Source: Neisseria perflava (GTDB lineage: Bacteria > Pseudomonadota > Gammaproteobacteria > Burkholderiales > Neisseriaceae). Taken from it: 64,000 bases of DNA. The notes beneath the pieces were generated by a model. The model was not told where the DNA came from. It searched no databases and saw only the letters and a program-made list of their open reading frames with translations. The translations under genes were made by a program, and so were the position numbers. Below, one piece after another: positions 7,352-13,272 of the stretch. The stretch lies in assembly GCF_002863305.2 (NCBI RefSeq), contig NZ_CP136962.1:1550001-1614000 (forward strand). The letters run 5' to 3'. Within the stretch, counting starts at the first letter, position 1. Each line of letters begins with the position of its first letter.

Positions 7352-8029
7352 ATGTACGAATTTACCGCCGCACAGCAGAAGAAAGCACTCTTCTGGCTGG
7401 TGCTTTTCCATATTTTTATTATTGCCGCCAGCAACTATCTGGTTCAGTTCCCCTTTCAAATTTTCGGTATCTTTACCACTTGGGGCGCATTTTCCTTTCC
7501 CTTTATCTTCCTCGCTACCGACCTGACCGTGCGCATTTTCGGCGCGCCGTTGGCGAGACGGATTATTTTTTGGGTGATGTTCCCCGCCCTGCTGCTCTCT
7601 TACGTCTTCTCCGTCCTCTTTCATGACGGCAACTGGACAGGCTGGGCATCTTTAACCGAATTTAACACCTTCGTCGGCCGTATCGCATTGGCCAGCTTTT
7701 CCGCCTATGCGCTCGGGCAAATCCTCGATATTTTCGTGTTCAACAGATTACGCCGTCTGAAATCATGGTGGATTGCCCCTACTGCTTCCACCGTTGTCGG
7801 CAATGCTTTGGACACGCTGGTGTTTTTCGCCGTTGCCTTTTATGCGAGCAACGATGAATTTATGGCGGCAAATTGGCAGGGCATCGCATTTGTCGATTAT
7901 CTGTTCAAACTCGCCATCTGCACCCTCTTCTTCCTGCCTGCATACGGCATCGTATTGAGCATCTTGACCAAAAAACTGACTTCCTTAAACGTCCGTCAAG
8001 AAATGCCCGAATCGGTTTTAGCCAAATAA
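7352..8029 (+). CDS. yhhQ: Queuosine precursor transporter, YhhQ family
   Basis: Integral inner-membrane protein of 225 residues with about six hydrophobic helices, assigned to the YhhQ/VUT family that imports preQ0/preQ1. Visible family features are FPFIFLATDLTVRIFG, the GQILDIFVFNRLR segment and SNALDT-like GNALDTLVFFAVAF. It lies 101 bp after queF, so it may share that transcript. A rare AT-preceded DUS copy sits at about 7322 just before the gene. Confidence 0.9.
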   Translation: MYEFTAAQQKKALFWLVLFHIFIIAASNYLVQFPFQIFGIFTTWGAFSFPFIFLATDLTVRIFGAPLARRIIFWVMFPALLLSYVFSVLFHDGNWTGWASLTEFNTFVGRIALASFSAYALGQILDIFVFNRLRRLKSWWIAPTASTVVGNALDTLVFFAVAFYASNDEFMAANWQGIAFVDYLFKLAICTLFFLPAYGIVLSILTKKLTSLNVRQEMPESVLAK

Positions 8030-8046: not shown

Positions 8047-8080
8047 AGGCCGTCTGAAACTTTAATCGTTCAGACGGCCT
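8047..8080 (+). terminator. DUS terminator, interrupted by the adjacent element
   Basis: Inverted AG-DUS arms follow yhhQ, but the second arm stops at GGCCT with no T-run. The missing continuation (GGCCTTTTATATTTTC) is found at 12066, on the far side of the inverted-repeat-bounded segment 8081-12065. Confidence 0.75.
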
Positions 8081-8099
8081 GAGACCTTTGCAAAATTCC
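8081..8099 (+). repeat. Left terminal inverted repeat
   Basis: GAGACCTTTGCAAAATTCC. Exact reverse complement of 12047-12065; its first 14 bases are also the exact complement of 11934-11947. Confidence 0.85.
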
Positions 8100-8194
8100 A
8101 CCGCAATCCCACCGCTTGCAGGCTACCTGAAAAGTCAAACGCCGTTTTCCCGGTATGAGAAAACGGCGTTTGTTGATGACAAGGTTTGCAAGGA

Positions 8195-9283
8195 TTACAA
8201 AGTCGGGTAATCGGTGTAGCCCTGCTCGCCGCCGCCGAACATGGTGGCTTTGTCGGCGGGATTGAGTTCGGCGTTCAGCTCAAAGCGTTTGACCAAATCG
8301 GGATTGGCAAGAAACGGTACGCCGTAGGCGATGAAGTCGGCGATGCCTTTTTGCAGCTCCGCTTCGCCCGTTTCGCGGTCGTATGCCGTGCCGGCAATCA
8401 GGGTGTGTTTGATTTGGCTGCCGAAGCGTTCGATTTCGTCGTCTTGCGGATAATGCGGCAGCAGCGGGAACATCGGGCTGCGCTTCATCAGTTCTACAAA
8501 GGCAAAATCAAGTTTGTTGAGCTCGCCGATCAGATAATCGTAGCTGGCGGCAGGGTCGTCAAACGCCATGCCCGCGTAAGGGTGCAGGGGCGAGATTTTG
8601 ATGCCGATTTTGATGCCGACTTTGTCGCCGCCCACCGCGTCAATCAAACCACGCATGATTTCCAGCGTAAAACGGGCTTTGTTTTCGATGCTGCCGCCGT
8701 ATTCGTCATCGCGCAGGTTGCTGCTGTCGGCGAAAAACTGCTGCGGCAGGTAGCCGTTTGCCATGTGCAGCTCCACGCCGTCGAAGCCGGCTTTGATGGC
8801 ATTTTTGGCCGCCTGAATGTAGTCGGCTTGGGTTTGTTTGATTTCGCCCAGCGTCAGCGCGCGCGGGGTTTCAAAATCCTGCAAGCCTTGCGAAGTAAAG
8901 TGCTGCATGCCTTCGATTTTTACGGCAGACGGGGCGACGGGCAGTTTGCCTTGGCGGTCGGTGGAATGGGCGACGCGCCCTGTGTGCCAAAGTTGGGCGA
9001 AGATTTTGCCGCCTTGGGCGTGTACCGCCTGCGTGATTTTTTGCCAAGCGGCGATTTGCTCGTCGGTGTAAATGCTTGGTGTGAGCGGGCTGCCGACGGC
9101 GTCGGGCGAGATGTTGATGGCTTCGGAAATGATCAGGCCTGCGGCGGCGCGTTGGGCGTAATACGCTGCCATTAGGTCGGTCGGCACGCCGTCTGCGGTG
9201 GCACGGCTGCGGGTCATCGCCGCCATCACCATGCGGTTGTTTAAGGACACATTGCCGATTTTGCCGGGGGATAGAAGTTTCAT
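8195..9283 (-). CDS. nemA: Old yellow enzyme family ene-reductase (NemA-like)
   Basis: FMN-dependent NADPH oxidoreductase that reduces activated C=C bonds, N-ethylmaleimide and nitro-organics in the cytoplasm. The 362-residue protein has the complete TIM-barrel pattern: N-terminal LLSPGKIGNVSLNNRMVMAA, then AAMTRSRA, FAQLWHTGRVAH, GVELHMANGYLPQQFF and YGGSIENKARF. It is transcribed away from a LysR gene, a common arrangement in which the regulator senses an electrophile. It lies in the inverted-repeat-bounded segment, so it is probably acquired. Confidence 0.93.
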   Translation of the reverse strand: MKLLSPGKIGNVSLNNRMVMAAMTRSRATADGVPTDLMAAYYAQRAAAGLIISEAINISPDAVGSPLTPSIYTDEQIAAWQKITQAVHAQGGKIFAQLWHTGRVAHSTDRQGKLPVAPSAVKIEGMQHFTSQGLQDFETPRALTLGEIKQTQADYIQAAKNAIKAGFDGVELHMANGYLPQQFFADSSNLRDDEYGGSIENKARFTLEIMRGLIDAVGGDKVGIKIGIKISPLHPYAGMAFDDPAASYDYLIGELNKLDFAFVELMKRSPMFPLLPHYPQDDEIERFGSQIKHTLIAGTAYDRETGEAELQKGIADFIAYGVPFLANPDLVKRFELNAELNPADKATMFGGGEQGYTDYPTL

Positions 9284-9434
9284 GATGGGCTCCGTTTGGG
9301 CTGAATGGTTAAGATGTGCGTATTGTAACGGGTCTGATTTTTAGGATAAATACTGAAAAATCGAAAAAGTGTGGTTGAGATGTTATGAAACGTATTGTAG
9401 AGAAGATTGCTTTTCAGATAAATATGGTTTTATA

Positions 9435-9447
9435 GATAACACTTATC
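9435..9447. promoter_or_regulatory. Candidate LysR-type operator in the nemA-lysR gap
   Basis: GATAACACTTATC is a perfect 5-3-5 dyad in the 213-bp divergent gap, just upstream of a TATAAT (9458-9463) that could be the lysR -10 box. The position would let the regulator repress its own gene while activating nemA; that is inference. Confidence 0.45.
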
Positions 9448-9496
9448 CATTTTTAGATATAATAGGTTACCTGAAATCAGCAATAGACAATTATCA

Positions 9497-10375
9497 ATGG
9501 ATTATTTAAACGAAATGGCGTTATTTGCCGAAGTGGCGGAAGCCAAGGGATTTAGCAAAGCAGCCGCGAAACTGGGGATGCCGCAATCAACGTTATCACG
9601 CAGAGTCAGTGAATTGGAAAAGCAGCTGGGTTTACAGCTTTTGAACCGCACGACCCGGCGGGTTGAGCTGACCGAAGCCGGTAGGCGTTATTTCGAGCGG
9701 GTAAAGCCTATTATGGAAGAAGCGCGACGGATTCATGACGAGCTAAGCGGGATGCTGGTGCGTCCGTACGGCGTGCTGCGTGTATCGCTCCCCGTTGATT
9801 TTTCTTATGAATTTCTTGCGCCCCTACTCCCCGAATTTGCCGCGCAATACCCTGAAATCAAGCTGGAAATGGATGTTACGCCGCGTAAAGTCGATTTGAT
9901 TGGTGAGCCGTTCGATTTGGTCATCCGCGCGGGAGAACAGCCCGATTCAGGGTATATTTCCACAGTGCTGATGCATGATGAACGTTATCTCTATGCCTCT
10001 CCAAGCTATCTGGCCAAACACGGCGAGCCGCAAACACCACAGGATTTACCCGCTGCCGACTGCCTACGTTTTCAGACGGCCTCAAATTGGACCTTGCTAA
10101 ACAGGGCAGGTGAAACCGTACTCATCACCGCGCAATCGCCCTATGCCGTCAACAGCATGGGCATGCTGGCACGCATGGCTGCGCATGGCTTGGGGGTTGC
10201 CTTTATACCGGCAATAATGGCAGAACAATACGAAACGTCAGGTCATCTGAAACGCATACTGCCTGACTGGAAAGGACAGAGCGTCCCCATTTACGCCTTA
10301 ACTGCCACGCGTCTGCTGCCGGCAAAAACAAAATGTTTTATTGCATTTTTGCGCAGCAAAACGAAGGCTGCTTGA
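9497..10375 (+). CDS. LysR-family transcriptional regulator
   Basis: A 292-residue DNA-binding regulator. The N-terminal winged helix-turn-helix is clear: FAEVAEAKGFSKAAAKLGMPQSTLSRRVSELEKQLGLQLLNRTTRRVELTEAG. The rest is a periplasmic-binding-protein-like effector domain (about residues 90-290) beginning VLRVSLPVDFSYEFLAPLL, like the CrgA/DsdC-type subgroup. The divergent neighbour is the ene-reductase, the likely target. I cannot tell it apart from CrgA-like paralogues by sequence alone. Confidence 0.92.
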   Translation: MDYLNEMALFAEVAEAKGFSKAAAKLGMPQSTLSRRVSELEKQLGLQLLNRTTRRVELTEAGRRYFERVKPIMEEARRIHDELSGMLVRPYGVLRVSLPVDFSYEFLAPLLPEFAAQYPEIKLEMDVTPRKVDLIGEPFDLVIRAGEQPDSGYISTVLMHDERYLYASPSYLAKHGEPQTPQDLPAADCLRFQTASNWTLLNRAGETVLITAQSPYAVNSMGMLARMAAHGLGVAFIPAIMAEQYETSGHLKRILPDWKGQSVPIYALTATRLLPAKTKCFIAFLRSKTKAA

Positions 10376-10462
10376 AAGCATAAAAGCAGCCTGCACTTGC
10401 CGCTTGCTGTAACCGAGTGATATTCCCGCAATCCCCCTTTCCCCATTTTTAAAGAAACGCCC

Positions 10463-10909
10463 ATGAAATCCAAACTATCCACGCTCGTCGCTAGCGTCCT
10501 TCTCGCAGCCTGTTCTGCCGTTCCGCATCATAACGAACAGGCGAAAGCCCTGCTGGACGAAGGCATCGCCCTGTATCAACAACAGGATTACCAACACGCC
10601 AAGCCCTACTTTGAGCAGGCGCAACAGGCGGGGCATATGAAAGCACCGCGTTATCTGGGGCTGATGTATCTGAACGGCAAAGGCGTCGCCCAAAATGCGC
10701 AAACCGCTTTCGCCTACTTCACGCAGGCTGCCAAAGCGGGCGACATTACCGGGCAATACTGGCTGGGCTATTGCTACGAAAACGGCGTCGGCACGGCGAA
10801 AGACACGACCCAAGCCGTGCGCTGGTATCAAAAATCCGCCGCACGCGGCGACCATGTTTCCCAGCCTGCCATTGACGCGCTGAACCGCTTGGGCGTAAAA
10901 ACAAATTAA
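10463..10909 (+). CDS. Sel1-repeat lipoprotein
   Basis: A 148-residue exported lipoprotein: signal peptide ending in the lipobox LAAC (Cys near residue 18) and then two Sel1-type helical repeats, AKPYFEQAQQAGHMKAPRYLGLMYLNGKGV and the following AFAYFTQAAKAGDITGQYWLGYCYENGVGT. Such repeats mediate protein contacts; no enzyme function is visible. It is 30 bp before a second lipoprotein gene and probably cotranscribed with it. Confidence 0.85.
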   Translation: MKSKLSTLVASVLLAACSAVPHHNEQAKALLDEGIALYQQQDYQHAKPYFEQAQQAGHMKAPRYLGLMYLNGKGVAQNAQTAFAYFTQAAKAGDITGQYWLGYCYENGVGTAKDTTQAVRWYQKSAARGDHVSQPAIDALNRLGVKTN

Positions 10910-10939
10910 CCGTTTCCCTCAATCTTTCAAGGAGTTTCC

Positions 10940-11920
10940 ATGAAAAAGACCTTCTCCGTCATCGCCACCGGCCTGCTGCTGGCAGCCTGCACCGCCACGC
11001 AAAACACCGCTGAAAACAGCCCTGCCGCCCAAAGCGCGCAAAATCCCGCTTGGGACAAACAATACGGCGGCGCGGACAAATCCTACGACAGCCGCCTGCT
11101 CGCCCTACGCGAACAAATCGCCCCGCGTTTTGAAGTGCTGACCTTCAAAGACCCGCAAACAGGCAAAGAAATGCAGTACAACCTGTACACGCCCAAAAAC
11201 CTCGAGCCCGGCCGCAAATACCCGCTGGTGATGTTTATTGCCGATGCCAGCACCGTAGGCAAAGGCGTGAAAGCCCCGCTGATGCAGGGCTACGGCGGCA
11301 TTATTTGGGCAACCGACGAAGCGCAGGCAAAACACTCCGCCTTCGTCCTCGTGCCGTCCTACACCGGAACGGCGGTCAACGACCAATGGCAAACCTCAGA
11401 CGAAGTCGGCATGACCCTGCGCCTCGTCAAAAGCCTGATGACCCAAAAACCGATCGACCCCGACCGCGTTTACACCACAGGCCAATCCATGGGTGGCATG
11501 ATTTCCTTCTATCTCAACAGCATCGAACCAAACTTCTTTGCCGCTTCCATGTTCGTCGGCAGCCAATGGGACATCAACGTATTGAAACCGCTGACGCGGG
11601 CGAAGTTCATCTACACCGTTTCCGCCGCCGACCCGAAGGCATCGGCAGGCATGGCGCAAGTCGGCGAAATGCTGCAACAAAACAAAGTCGCCTACGCCGA
11701 AACCGAATTTTCCGCCAAATTGCCGCAGGCGGAACAAGACGCAAAAGTCCAACAAATGCTCGCCCAAGGCAAACGCATCAACTTCATCCGCTTCACGCCG
11801 AATACGGTGATTCCAGAAAACACCACCCACAAAGGCGCAGAGCATATGTATTCGTTTGATTACGCCTACCTGCTCGAACCCGCCCGCGATTGGCTGATGC
11901 AGCAGCAGCGCGGTAAGTAA
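10940..11920 (+). CDS. Alpha/beta-hydrolase lipoprotein (esterase/peptidase-like)
   Basis: A 326-residue protein with signal peptide and lipobox LAAC, so membrane-anchored after export. The hydrolase domain shows the nucleophile elbow GQSMGGM (Ser near residue 183), preceded by YNLYTPKNLEPGRKYPLVMFIADAS, as in PHB-depolymerase or prolyl-oligopeptidase-like esterases. The catalytic His is probably in NTTHKGAEHMYSFDYAY. Substrate unknown. The good ribosome site AAGGAG precedes the ATG. It is the last gene before the right-hand IS-like ends. Confidence 0.82.
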   Translation: MKKTFSVIATGLLLAACTATQNTAENSPAAQSAQNPAWDKQYGGADKSYDSRLLALREQIAPRFEVLTFKDPQTGKEMQYNLYTPKNLEPGRKYPLVMFIADASTVGKGVKAPLMQGYGGIIWATDEAQAKHSAFVLVPSYTGTAVNDQWQTSDEVGMTLRLVKSLMTQKPIDPDRVYTTGQSMGGMISFYLNSIEPNFFAASMFVGSQWDINVLKPLTRAKFIYTVSAADPKASAGMAQVGEMLQQNKVAYAETEFSAKLPQAEQDAKVQQMLAQGKRINFIRFTPNTVIPENTTHKGAEHMYSFDYAYLLEPARDWLMQQQRGK

Positions 11921-11933
11921 GCCGCCAGCACAG

Positions 11934-12065
11934 TTTGCAAAGGTCTCGGTCGATGTGTTTGGCAATCATGGCTTGGGCGGTTTGCTGGAAGAAGGTGCTC
12001 ATGAGAAATCCCCTAAATGTCTTTGTGGAAATTTAGGGGATTTGGGGGAATTTTGCAAAGGTCTC
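11934..12065 (-). pseudogene. IS5-family (IS1106-like) transposase stub and right end
   Basis: On the minus strand from 12002, MSTFFQQTAQAMIAKHIDR reads as the first 19 residues of the IS1106-type transposase as I remember it, and then the match stops at about 11946. Beyond the start codon is the IS right end finishing with GCAAAGGTCTC at 12065. Immediately before the stub, at 11934-11947, lies a second copy of the terminal sequence, TTTGCAAAGGTCTC, in the same orientation. The structure is what deletion between two neighbouring IS copies would leave. Confidence 0.75.
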
Positions 12066-12087
12066 GGCCTTTTATATTTTCAAATGA

Positions 12088-13272
12088 TTAACCGGTCAAT
12101 TGTTTGGTAATCAGTTTTTTCAGTGGCGGGAAGTTATTGCTTGCACGCAATACCAAACCGCGCAGCAGTTTCGCCGGAGCAGTTTCATTGGTAAAGAGTT
12201 TCAGCAGCATATTAGTGCCGTGGTAAATCGGATGGGCATGGAACATATGCTTGGTGCTGTATTTTTCCAGCAGGCTCTTCGCACCAATATCCTGACCGCG
12301 TTGATCGGCTTCGAGAACCAATTTAGCTAAAAGATCAGCACTTGCCAGACCCAAGTTGAAGCCGTGCGCAGTAACCGGATGCATACCGACTGCGGCATCG
12401 CCGATTAATGCGCTGCGTTTGCCGTAGAAACGTTGGGCAATCATGCCGACCAAAGGATAATTGTGAATGGTGCTGACCAATTCCATATCGCCCAAACGGC
12501 CTTTGAGTTGCTCTTTCACGCTGGCCGCCAATTCTTCCGGCGACATGTTTTTAATCGTTTCGGCCTTATCGCTGTCCACCGTAATCACTGTATTGGTCAA
12601 GTGTTCTTCCAAAGGCAGCAACGCAATGGTGCGGCCATAGTGGAAGCATTCATATGCGGTATGCAGGTTGGACAGAGTATGCTTCATGCGGCACACAAAC
12701 ATGGTGCGGCTGTAATCGTGCATATCGGAAGAAATGCCCAATTGACGGCGCGTTTGCGAGAAGCGGCTATCGGCGGCCAACAACAGACGGCCGGTCAATA
12801 CTTCGCCGCTTTCCAAAATAACTTGCGCCTCATCGTCAGAAGTTTTGACTTCTTTAACATTGGTACCGGCCAGGATTTTCACGTTGTCCAATTTGGACAC
12901 GACTTCATAAGCGGCTTTGCGGATATTGTGATTGGAGATCAAATAGCCCAAGCAGTCCGCAGGCTCGCCACGCGCCTGAGTCGGTTGCGGGAAGTGGAGC
13001 TGGTAATCGGAATGGCCGTTCAACACTTTGGCATCGCGCAAAGGATAAATTTCGTCTTTTGGAATCAAATCCCACATACCCAATCGCTGCATGATTTCGC
13101 GCGACAGATGCGTCAGTGCGATTTCACGGCCGTCATACGGCGGATTTTGCAACACTTCTAAAGGACTTCTTTCAATCAGGGTTATGTTCAAGCCGCTTCC
13201 GGCCAACTCTGCGGCAAAACTTAATCCGGCAGGGCCTGCGCCGACGACGAGAATATCACTGTGTAAGCTCAT
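12088..13272 (-). CDS. ubiM: FAD-dependent ubiquinone-biosynthesis hydroxylase UbiM
   Basis: A 394-residue flavoprotein monooxygenase of the UbiH/VisC family: GAGPAGL Rossmann motif at the N-terminus, DGREIAL, and the second FAD motif GDAAVGMHPVTAHGFNLGL near residue 290. Neisseria is reported to use one broad hydroxylase, UbiM, for the ring hydroxylations that other bacteria split among UbiF, UbiH and UbiI. I assign UbiM on that basis; UbiH or UbiF annotations would describe the same fold. It converges on the transposon-like segment and its own terminator region abuts it. Confidence 0.75.
   Translation of the reverse strand: MSLHSDILVVGAGPAGLSFAAELAGSGLNITLIERSPLEVLQNPPYDGREIALTHLSREIMQRLGMWDLIPKDEIYPLRDAKVLNGHSDYQLHFPQPTQARGEPADCLGYLISNHNIRKAAYEVVSKLDNVKILAGTNVKEVKTSDDEAQVILESGEVLTGRLLLAADSRFSQTRRQLGISSDMHDYSRTMFVCRMKHTLSNLHTAYECFHYGRTIALLPLEEHLTNTVITVDSDKAETIKNMSPEELAASVKEQLKGRLGDMELVSTIHNYPLVGMIAQRFYGKRSALIGDAAVGMHPVTAHGFNLGLASADLLAKLVLEADQRGQDIGAKSLLEKYSTKHMFHAHPIYHGTNMLLKLFTNETAPAKLLRGLVLRASNNFPPLKKLITKQLTG

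What the first reader, a model, noticed from the sequence alone, without database searches (positions are those of the whole stretch)
8081..12065. A 4-kb transposon-like element with 19-bp perfect ends inserted into a DUS terminator
Seen: exact 19-bp inverted repeats at 8081-8099 and 12047-12065; GGCCT directly outside both ends; and removal of the segment plus one GGCCT restores a normal uptake-sequence terminator (CAGACGGCCTTTTATATTTTC). Four cargo genes lie inside: an ene-reductase, its LysR regulator and two lipoproteins. Known: IS1106-type IS5-family elements in Neisseria have similar ends. Inference: two IS copies, now mostly deleted, carried the cargo as a unit, and an intact IS elsewhere could still move it.
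Basis: partly seen in the sequence, partly recalled or inferred. Interest (0 to 1): 0.85.

Follow-up and report, generated by a model that had tools for sequence, protein, structure and literature searches.

The report
Gene cassette jumped into DNA-uptake signal
In a Neisseria-type bacterium, four metabolic genes sit between the two ends of a common jumping element that landed exactly beside a DNA-uptake signal, and in some relatives the same kind of element sits at such signals far more often than chance, which could tie jumping genes to DNA sharing between bacteria.

Summary
A 3,985-bp segment (8081-12065) has perfect 19-bp inverted ends and GGCCT on both sides, and the five nearest relatives (ubiM 99% identical) carry the empty, uninterrupted terminator. 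The 19 bp equal the inverted repeat of complete ~1.22-kb IS1106-type (IS5-family) insertion sequences in relatives, which mostly make 5-bp repeats too (24 of 36 examined). The right end is a 119-bp piece of such an IS (97% identical); the left end is only the 19-bp repeat. Best reading: a passenger-carrying, non-autonomous derivative of that IS, moved by transposase supplied in trans. "Two deleted IS copies" is only half supported. Related cargo genes lie at other loci in relatives.

The larger result is the landing site. In one close relative (G015), 11 of 15 complete IS copies sit exactly at the edge of a DNA uptake sequence (DUS), where about 0.02 are expected. Such junctions occur in 24 of 46 genomes of the genus (39 carry the tips) and are absent in 15. 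Insertion leaves the 12-bp DUS intact beside the element. My full-text searches listed no report of this. The window's own genome is not held, so later remodelling of a landed IS remains open.

The parts
8049..8080 (.). DUS-pair terminator behind yhhQ; the 12-bp DUS TTCAGACGGCCT (8069-8080) stays intact and abuts the element
   Evidence: same terminator uninterrupted in five relatives
8076..8080 (.). left copy of the 5-bp target repeat GGCCT
8081..8099 (+). left inverted repeat, 19 bp, identical to the ends of complete IS1106-type elements
8120..8131 (+). AGGCTACCTGAA, DUS of Eikenella dialect (letters recalled); the only exact one in the 64 kb
8195..9283 (-). OYE-family flavin ene-reductase, 362 aa, open frame
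   Evidence: best hit 97% (P0001, unnamed, longest contig 1,443 bases), then 84-86% (P0002-P0004), then 77-78% including Neisseria sp. HMSC065C04 and Eikenella
9497..10375 (+). LysR-type regulator, divergent from the reductase
   Evidence: 93% DNA identity to a G036 locus
10384..10395 (+). AAGCAGCCTGCA, DUS of Kingella dialect (letters recalled); the only exact one in the 64 kb
10463..10909 (+). Sel1-repeat lipoprotein, 148 aa
10940..11920 (+). putative esterase lipoprotein, 326 aa
   Evidence: 92-96% protein identity at another locus in five other genomes
11934..11947 (-). internal copy of the element tip (14 bp), direct repeat of the right end; junction between native flank and IS fragment
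11947..12065 (-). 119-bp 5' fragment of an IS1106-type IS (tip, leader, first transposase codons), 115 of 119 identical to a complete copy in G015
12047..12065 (-). right inverted repeat, 19 bp
12066..12070 (.). right copy of the target repeat GGCCT

Best explanation
The segment is a non-autonomous, passenger-carrying derivative of an IS1106-type (IS5-family) insertion sequence. SHOWN: it has the parent IS's exact 19-bp ends, a fragment of that IS at one end, no transposase gene, four open reading frames of accessory type, a 5-bp target repeat as the parent usually makes, and an empty site in the five nearest relatives. INFERRED: transposase from a complete copy elsewhere bound the two outer 19-bp ends and moved all 3,985 bp as one unit into the GGCCT edge of the DUS terminator between yhhQ and ubiM. 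The target was probably not random: in several lineages this IS family sits at the first five bases of the DUS (AGGCC|GTCTGAA), duplicates them, and so leaves one full DUS beside itself. The unit probably formed when the Sel1-esterase flank was joined to an IS end through the short match TTTGCA, and the IS was then truncated inside its transposase gene.
For: Ends, repeats, empty sites. Parent IS: 36 IS-sized copies examined, mostly 1,217-1,230 bp (range 1,143-1,301); perfect 19-bp repeat in 18 of 36; 5-bp target repeat in 24 of 36. IS5-family transposase above the curated cut-off (NF033581, 259.7 vs 140 bits; PF01609/PF05598); most named relatives are just 'IS5 family transposase', a few 'IS1106A3', 'IS1106' or 'ISNme1 transposase'. 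Right fragment 115 of 119 identical. Cargo of foreign type: 1 canonical 10-bp DUS in 3,985 bp against about 6 expected (P 0.018, Poisson, which is too sharp because DUS come in pairs), and the window's only Eikenella- and Kingella-dialect DUS lie inside it. Native cargo flank in N. sicca reads AGCACAATTTGCAGAAACC where the window reads AGCACAGTTTGCAAAGGTCTC. IS copies or remnants lie near related genes in G036. A possible second unit: G037, 6,356 bp, restriction-modification genes plus an IS1106-type element, GGCCT on both sides.
Against: No second copy of this unit was found, and the window's own genome is not held, so movement as one piece is not proven: a complete IS could have landed first and been remodelled inside. 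No relative shows the left junction; only short matches to 8081-8110 (G042, G026) and 8111-8154 (G050) came up, and that search scored three candidate places per genome. 12 of 36 parent copies lack a 5-bp repeat. For G037 the two GGCCT may come from two different terminators, because G036 and G038 have another small gene and two terminators in that interval. The third tip at 11934-11947 shows at least one extra rearrangement.
Confidence: 0.68

Rival explanations
1. A complete IS1106-type element landed in the terminator, leaving the GGCCT repeat; later recombination or end-joining, perhaps with DNA taken up by transformation, replaced its interior by the cargo, leaving 19 bp on one side and 119 bp on the other.
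For: The target repeat and empty site would look the same; some relatives have complete copies at DUS terminators; the third tip and the TTTGCA microhomology show end-joining on the right.
Against: The left junction would have to fall exactly at the inner edge of the 19-bp repeat, the stretch shared by the two parent ends, which transposition is expected to need and chance does not favour.
Confidence: 0.2
2. Classical composite transposon: two full IS copies flanked the cargo, moved it here, and were then cut down to 19 and 119 bp.
For: IS fragment on the right; IS copies or remnants beside related genes in G036; [quoted passage not shown]
Against: Two independent large deletions that both spare the outer tips; no IS sequence beyond the repeat on the left.
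Confidence: 0.09
3. Whole-gene cassette exchange between conserved genes (minimal mobile element) by homologous recombination, the repeats being incidental.
For: Such exchange is described for Neisseria (PMC3898611, passages); the G037 interval looks like this in part.
Against: Exact target repeat and terminal repeats with a single-terminator empty site; the flanks right up to the insert match the relatives.
Confidence: 0.03

Closest known systems
IS1106 / IS1106A3-type insertion sequences of Neisseria (IS5 family)
   Same: 19-bp ends, 5-bp target repeat, sequence of the right-hand fragment
   Different: no transposase gene left; about 3.8 kb of passenger DNA; only 119 bp of IS remain on one side and 19 bp on the other
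Mobile insertion cassettes (MICs) and passenger-carrying IS derivatives (recalled; the term was seen only in the listing)
   Same: IS ends around passenger genes, no transposase, inferred mobilisation in trans
   Different: one end keeps a stretch of IS with the transposase start; an internal third tip; landing at a DUS
IS1106-flanked block 2 of N. gonorrhoeae (PMC3454330, passages read)
   Same: IS1106 copies suggested to move the DNA between them like a composite transposon
   Different: that block is about 68 kb and flanked by IS1106 copies; the passages I saw report no target repeat or empty site
IS elements that target REP repeats (PMC1525189, passages read)
   Different: there a loose 'near' association (type 2); here the break lies at a fixed base of the DUS with its first five bases duplicated
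Minimal mobile elements of Neisseria (PMC3898611, passages read)
   Same: whole genes between conserved genes
   Different: those are defined by exchange between conserved neighbours, not by terminal repeats and a target repeat

Membership tests
Non-autonomous IS5/IS1106-type passenger element (MIC-like) | both termini match the inverted repeats of an autonomous IS | tested here: met
   19 of 19 bp at both ends
Non-autonomous IS5/IS1106-type passenger element (MIC-like) | target repeat of the parent's length and an empty site in relatives | tested here: met
   GGCCT, 5 bp; parent 5 bp in 24 of 36 copies; empty in 5 of 5 nearest genomes
Non-autonomous IS5/IS1106-type passenger element (MIC-like) | no transposase inside; genes unrelated to transposition | tested here: met
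   only the first transposase codons remain
Non-autonomous IS5/IS1106-type passenger element (MIC-like) | moved in trans by the parent's transposase | not testable with these tools
   needs an assay
Non-autonomous IS5/IS1106-type passenger element (MIC-like) | same unit at more than one locus | tested here: inconclusive
   whole unit not seen in 83 family genomes, one per species, three candidate places scored per genome; own genome and sister strains not held
Composite transposon (two flanking IS copies) | recognisable IS copy on both sides | tested here: not met
   right 119 bp, left only the 19-bp repeat
IS5 family (parent IS) | IS5-type DDE transposase | tested here: met
   one parent copy (L268): NF033581 259.7 bits vs cut-off 140; PF01609, PF05598
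Minimal mobile element | exchange by homologous flanks without terminal repeats or target duplication | tested here: not met
   repeats and exact empty site

The most novel reading that the evidence does not exclude
IS1106-type elements, their miniature forms and passenger-carrying derivatives such as this one use the DNA uptake sequence as their landing site and duplicate its first five bases, so that a complete DUS stays directly beside the element. A transposon family that docks on the uptake signal would thereby be linked to DNA that competent Neisseria prefer to take up, coupling transposition to natural transformation and moving cargo such as these four genes, or restriction-modification genes in G037, between species.
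Probability: 0.35. Interest if true: 0.8.

Novelty: new variant of a known kind. Interest (0 to 1): 0.6.

Why it matters
The DUS is classically seen as a guard that keeps foreign DNA out (passage of PMC2397512). An insertion sequence that lands at the DUS without destroying it would spare the host's uptake signal and would carry its own entry ticket into the next cell. It could explain how IS copies and passenger genes spread among competent Neisseria, and it is directly testable with transposition and uptake assays and with strain-level genomes.

Tried and rejected
Ancestral arrangement of the four genes between yhhQ and ubiM: rejected, 0 of 30 ubiM loci examined have them there. Other 2-6 kb units between the same ends as further cargo transposons: the G008 units of 3,974, 2,063, 2,074 and 2,301 bp look like IS1106-type copies with other ISs inside (by eye); the 5,300-bp G001 unit has no target repeat. 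A chance palindrome: rejected. The left junction 8100-8194 was not found in 83 family genomes beyond short matches, three places scored per genome. G037's unit was first counted as a second clean insertion; one search weakened that. Simple preference for the 5-mer AGGCC as the whole story: in G015 all 8 copies with an AGGCC or GGCCT repeat are at a DUS, while 43% of such 5-mers in the window are (76 of 175; P 0.001); the window stands in for G015 here, and DUS are often intergenic, so selection for safe sites may add to the bias; the expectation of 0.02 assumes insertion anywhere in the genome. In G015, 2 of the 11 copies at a DUS (L254, L259) lack a matching repeat on the other side. Results against DUS targeting as a rule: of 39 genomes with tips, 15 have no DUS junction: G002, G006, G007, G008 (70 tips), G011, G017, G020 (25), G021 (58), G023, G024, G026, G027 (37), G036, G040, G041; G029 has 1 with 115 tips but only 254 DUS. 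The 50 rows of G008 shown are mostly the TTCAGACGACCT dialect. Three of the G020 copies lie in what looks like Correia repeats (by eye). GC content inside the segment (0.48-0.58) is only slightly above the flanks (0.42-0.53) and was not used.
Full report
What is there. Between yhhQ (7352-8029, NF008406) and ubiM (12088-13272, NF006593) lies a 3,985-bp segment, 8081-12065, with perfect 19-bp inverted ends and GGCCT on both sides. It holds an OYE-type ene-reductase, a divergent LysR regulator, a Sel1-repeat lipoprotein and a putative esterase lipoprotein, all in open frames. Among the 11 perfect 19-mer inverted pairs of the window it is the only one without a DUS.

Empty site. The window's assembly is not held. 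The five genomes with ubiM 99% identical (G001, G015, G036, G037, G038) have yhhQ and ubiM separated by one uninterrupted DUS terminator, CGTTCAGACGGCCTTTTATRTTTT. The window without the segment and one GGCCT reads the same but for one or two bases. None of 30 ubiM loci fetched, out of 45 genomes with a match, shows any of the four genes within about 1.5 kb. So this is an insertion in the window's lineage, not an ancestral arrangement lost elsewhere.

What the ends are. I examined 36 IS-sized elements with these tips in relatives: mostly 1,217-1,230 bp (range 1,143-1,301), 18 with the same perfect 19-bp repeat, 24 with a 5-bp target repeat (8 had none, 3 one base, 1 two bases). The transposase of one copy (L268) is IS5-family (NF033581 above cut-off; PF01609 and PF05598). 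Most named relatives are called IS5 family transposase, a few IS1106A3, IS1106 or ISNme1 transposase. The window's 11947-12065 is the first 119 bp of such an IS, 115 of 119 identical to L268. The left end has the 19 bp and then no further IS sequence. A third, 14-bp tip lies at 11934-11947, in direct repeat with the right end. There the native flank of the esterase gene in N. sicca (L060, AGCACAATTTGCAGAAACC) suggests that the cargo's own DNA was joined to an IS tip within the shared letters TTTGCA. The 64 kb hold no other pair of such ends.

Cargo. The Sel1-esterase pair lies at another locus in G008, G020, G023, G025 and G027 (esterase 92-96% protein identity) and in G036 and G038 (85-87%). 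G036 also has an ene-reductase (73% DNA), LysR (93%) and Sel1 (96%, with a gap) block, with a 3' IS1106-type remnant beside it. In Aggregatibacter actinomycetemcomitans (L062) the four genes are neighbours in cyclically permuted order, Sel1-esterase-reductase-LysR. Within the window the segment is poor in canonical DUS (1 against about 6 expected, P 0.018 by Poisson, which ignores pairing) and holds the only exact Eikenella-type and Kingella-type DUS (dialect names from passages of PMC3630211; letters recalled). The reductase's best hit is 97% (P0001, unnamed); the nearest named relatives are Neisseria sp. HMSC065C04 and Eikenella at 77-78%. The cargo is thus accessory DNA shared among oral bacteria, probably of mixed origin. 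What the genes do together is not shown; LysR control of the reductase is inferred from the divergent layout.

Landing site. G015 has 15 full-length copies by paired tips, and I fetched all of them. Eleven sit exactly at a DUS edge; among the 11 with a 5-bp repeat, 9 do, with AGGCC, GGCCT or ATGCC duplicated; two more (L254, L259) have the DUS on one side but no matching repeat. With 2,704 such DUS in 2.2 Mb, an insertion at random has a chance of about 0.0012. Across the genus, junctions of DUS and element tip occur in 24 of 46 genomes, against 39 of 46 with tips at all; 15 genomes have tips but no junction. Taking half the tips as the number of elements, the share in the 16 genomes computed is 0.67 in G015, 0.54 in G042, 0.53 in G035, 0.50 in G038 (4 elements), 0.40 in G043, 0.32 in G012, 0.28 in G013 and G046, 0.27 in G005, 0.25 in G001 (4 elements), 0.22 in G037, 0.02 in G029 and 0 in G008, G020, G021 and G036. 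The G008 rows shown are mostly another DUS dialect, AGGTCGTCTGAA. The preference is therefore strong but lineage-dependent. Because the first five DUS bases are duplicated, a full DUS remains next to the element; in the window it is 8069-8080.

Relatives of the architecture. G037 has a 6,356-bp unit with a lone 15-bp end, a type II restriction enzyme (RE_AlwI) and methyltransferase, and an IS1106-type element whose inner end is altered and whose transposase frame is interrupted, with GGCCT on both sides in DUS sequence. In G036 and G038 that interval holds a different small gene between two DUS terminators, so its repeat may be a coincidence of two terminators; I count it as a likely, not a proven, second unit. 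Small elements of 170-200 bp with the same tips number 77 in 6 of 46 genomes. In the 16 loci fetched, one search gave 18 rows for 16 distinct elements (L328 and L333 overlap): 10 of 16 have a 5-bp repeat, 14 of 16 carry dRS3-like repeats (my own pattern, name recalled), 8 of 16 a 10-bp DUS inside, and 2 of 16 sit at a DUS edge.

Mechanism and weight. Movement of the whole unit by transposase in trans explains the minimal left end, the outer tips, the target repeat and the empty site in one step. Remodelling of a complete IS after landing would leave the same repeat and remains possible. Published work seen here proposes composite-like movement of an IS1106-flanked block in gonococcus (PMC3454330, passages) and notes IS1106 near REP repeats in meningococcus (PMC1525189, passages; the word 'uptake' does not occur in it). 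The DUS dialect paper (PMC3630211) has no occurrence of 'insertion sequence' or 'transpos'. My searches listed no paper whose title, abstract start or passages seen names the DUS as an IS target; I did not read the listed papers in full and most subscription papers are not in the library, so this is no proof of novelty.

Noticed in passing
G015, G012, G013, G035, G042, G043, G046; loci L254-L268: IS1106-type elements and their small forms sit at a fixed base of the DNA uptake sequence far more often than chance, duplicating its first five bases and leaving a complete DUS beside them; 15 of 39 genomes with tips show no such junction.
   Followed up: partly
L275 1054-7409 (G037 C1:1859653-1866008): 6,356-bp unit with the same tips carrying a type II restriction enzyme and methyltransferase plus an IS1106-type element with an altered inner end, GGCCT on both sides between an M16-type peptidase gene and glmS (these two names by eye).
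   Followed up: partly
L325-L339, e.g. L326; G012 (32 elements), G013 (21), G035 (15): 170-200-bp elements with the same tips, often with 5-bp repeats (10 of 16), dRS3-like repeats (14 of 16) and a DUS inside (8 of 16): uptake-signal-carrying miniature elements.
   Followed up: partly
L219, L280, L289: An 82-bp palindromic element made of two copies of the IS left end, found in G008, G020 and G001 (tip pairs of the same size also in G006).
   Followed up: no
window 8120-8131 and 10384-10395: The window's only exact Eikenella-dialect and Kingella-dialect DUS both lie inside the insert.
   Followed up: yes
L062 (Aggregatibacter actinomycetemcomitans): The same four genes as neighbours in cyclically permuted order, esterase 83% identical to the window's.
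   Followed up: no
window 8594-8617: A 12-bp tandem repeat (GATTTTGATGCC twice) in the ene-reductase gene; the protein is 362 aa against 358 in the best hits, which the repeat could account for (not aligned).
   Followed up: no
L276, L278, L283 (G020): Three of the G020 IS copies appear to lie inside Correia-type repeats instead of DUS (recognised by eye).
   Followed up: no
G001:C1:4770-5951: A second, split copy of ubiM in the nearest relative.
   Followed up: no
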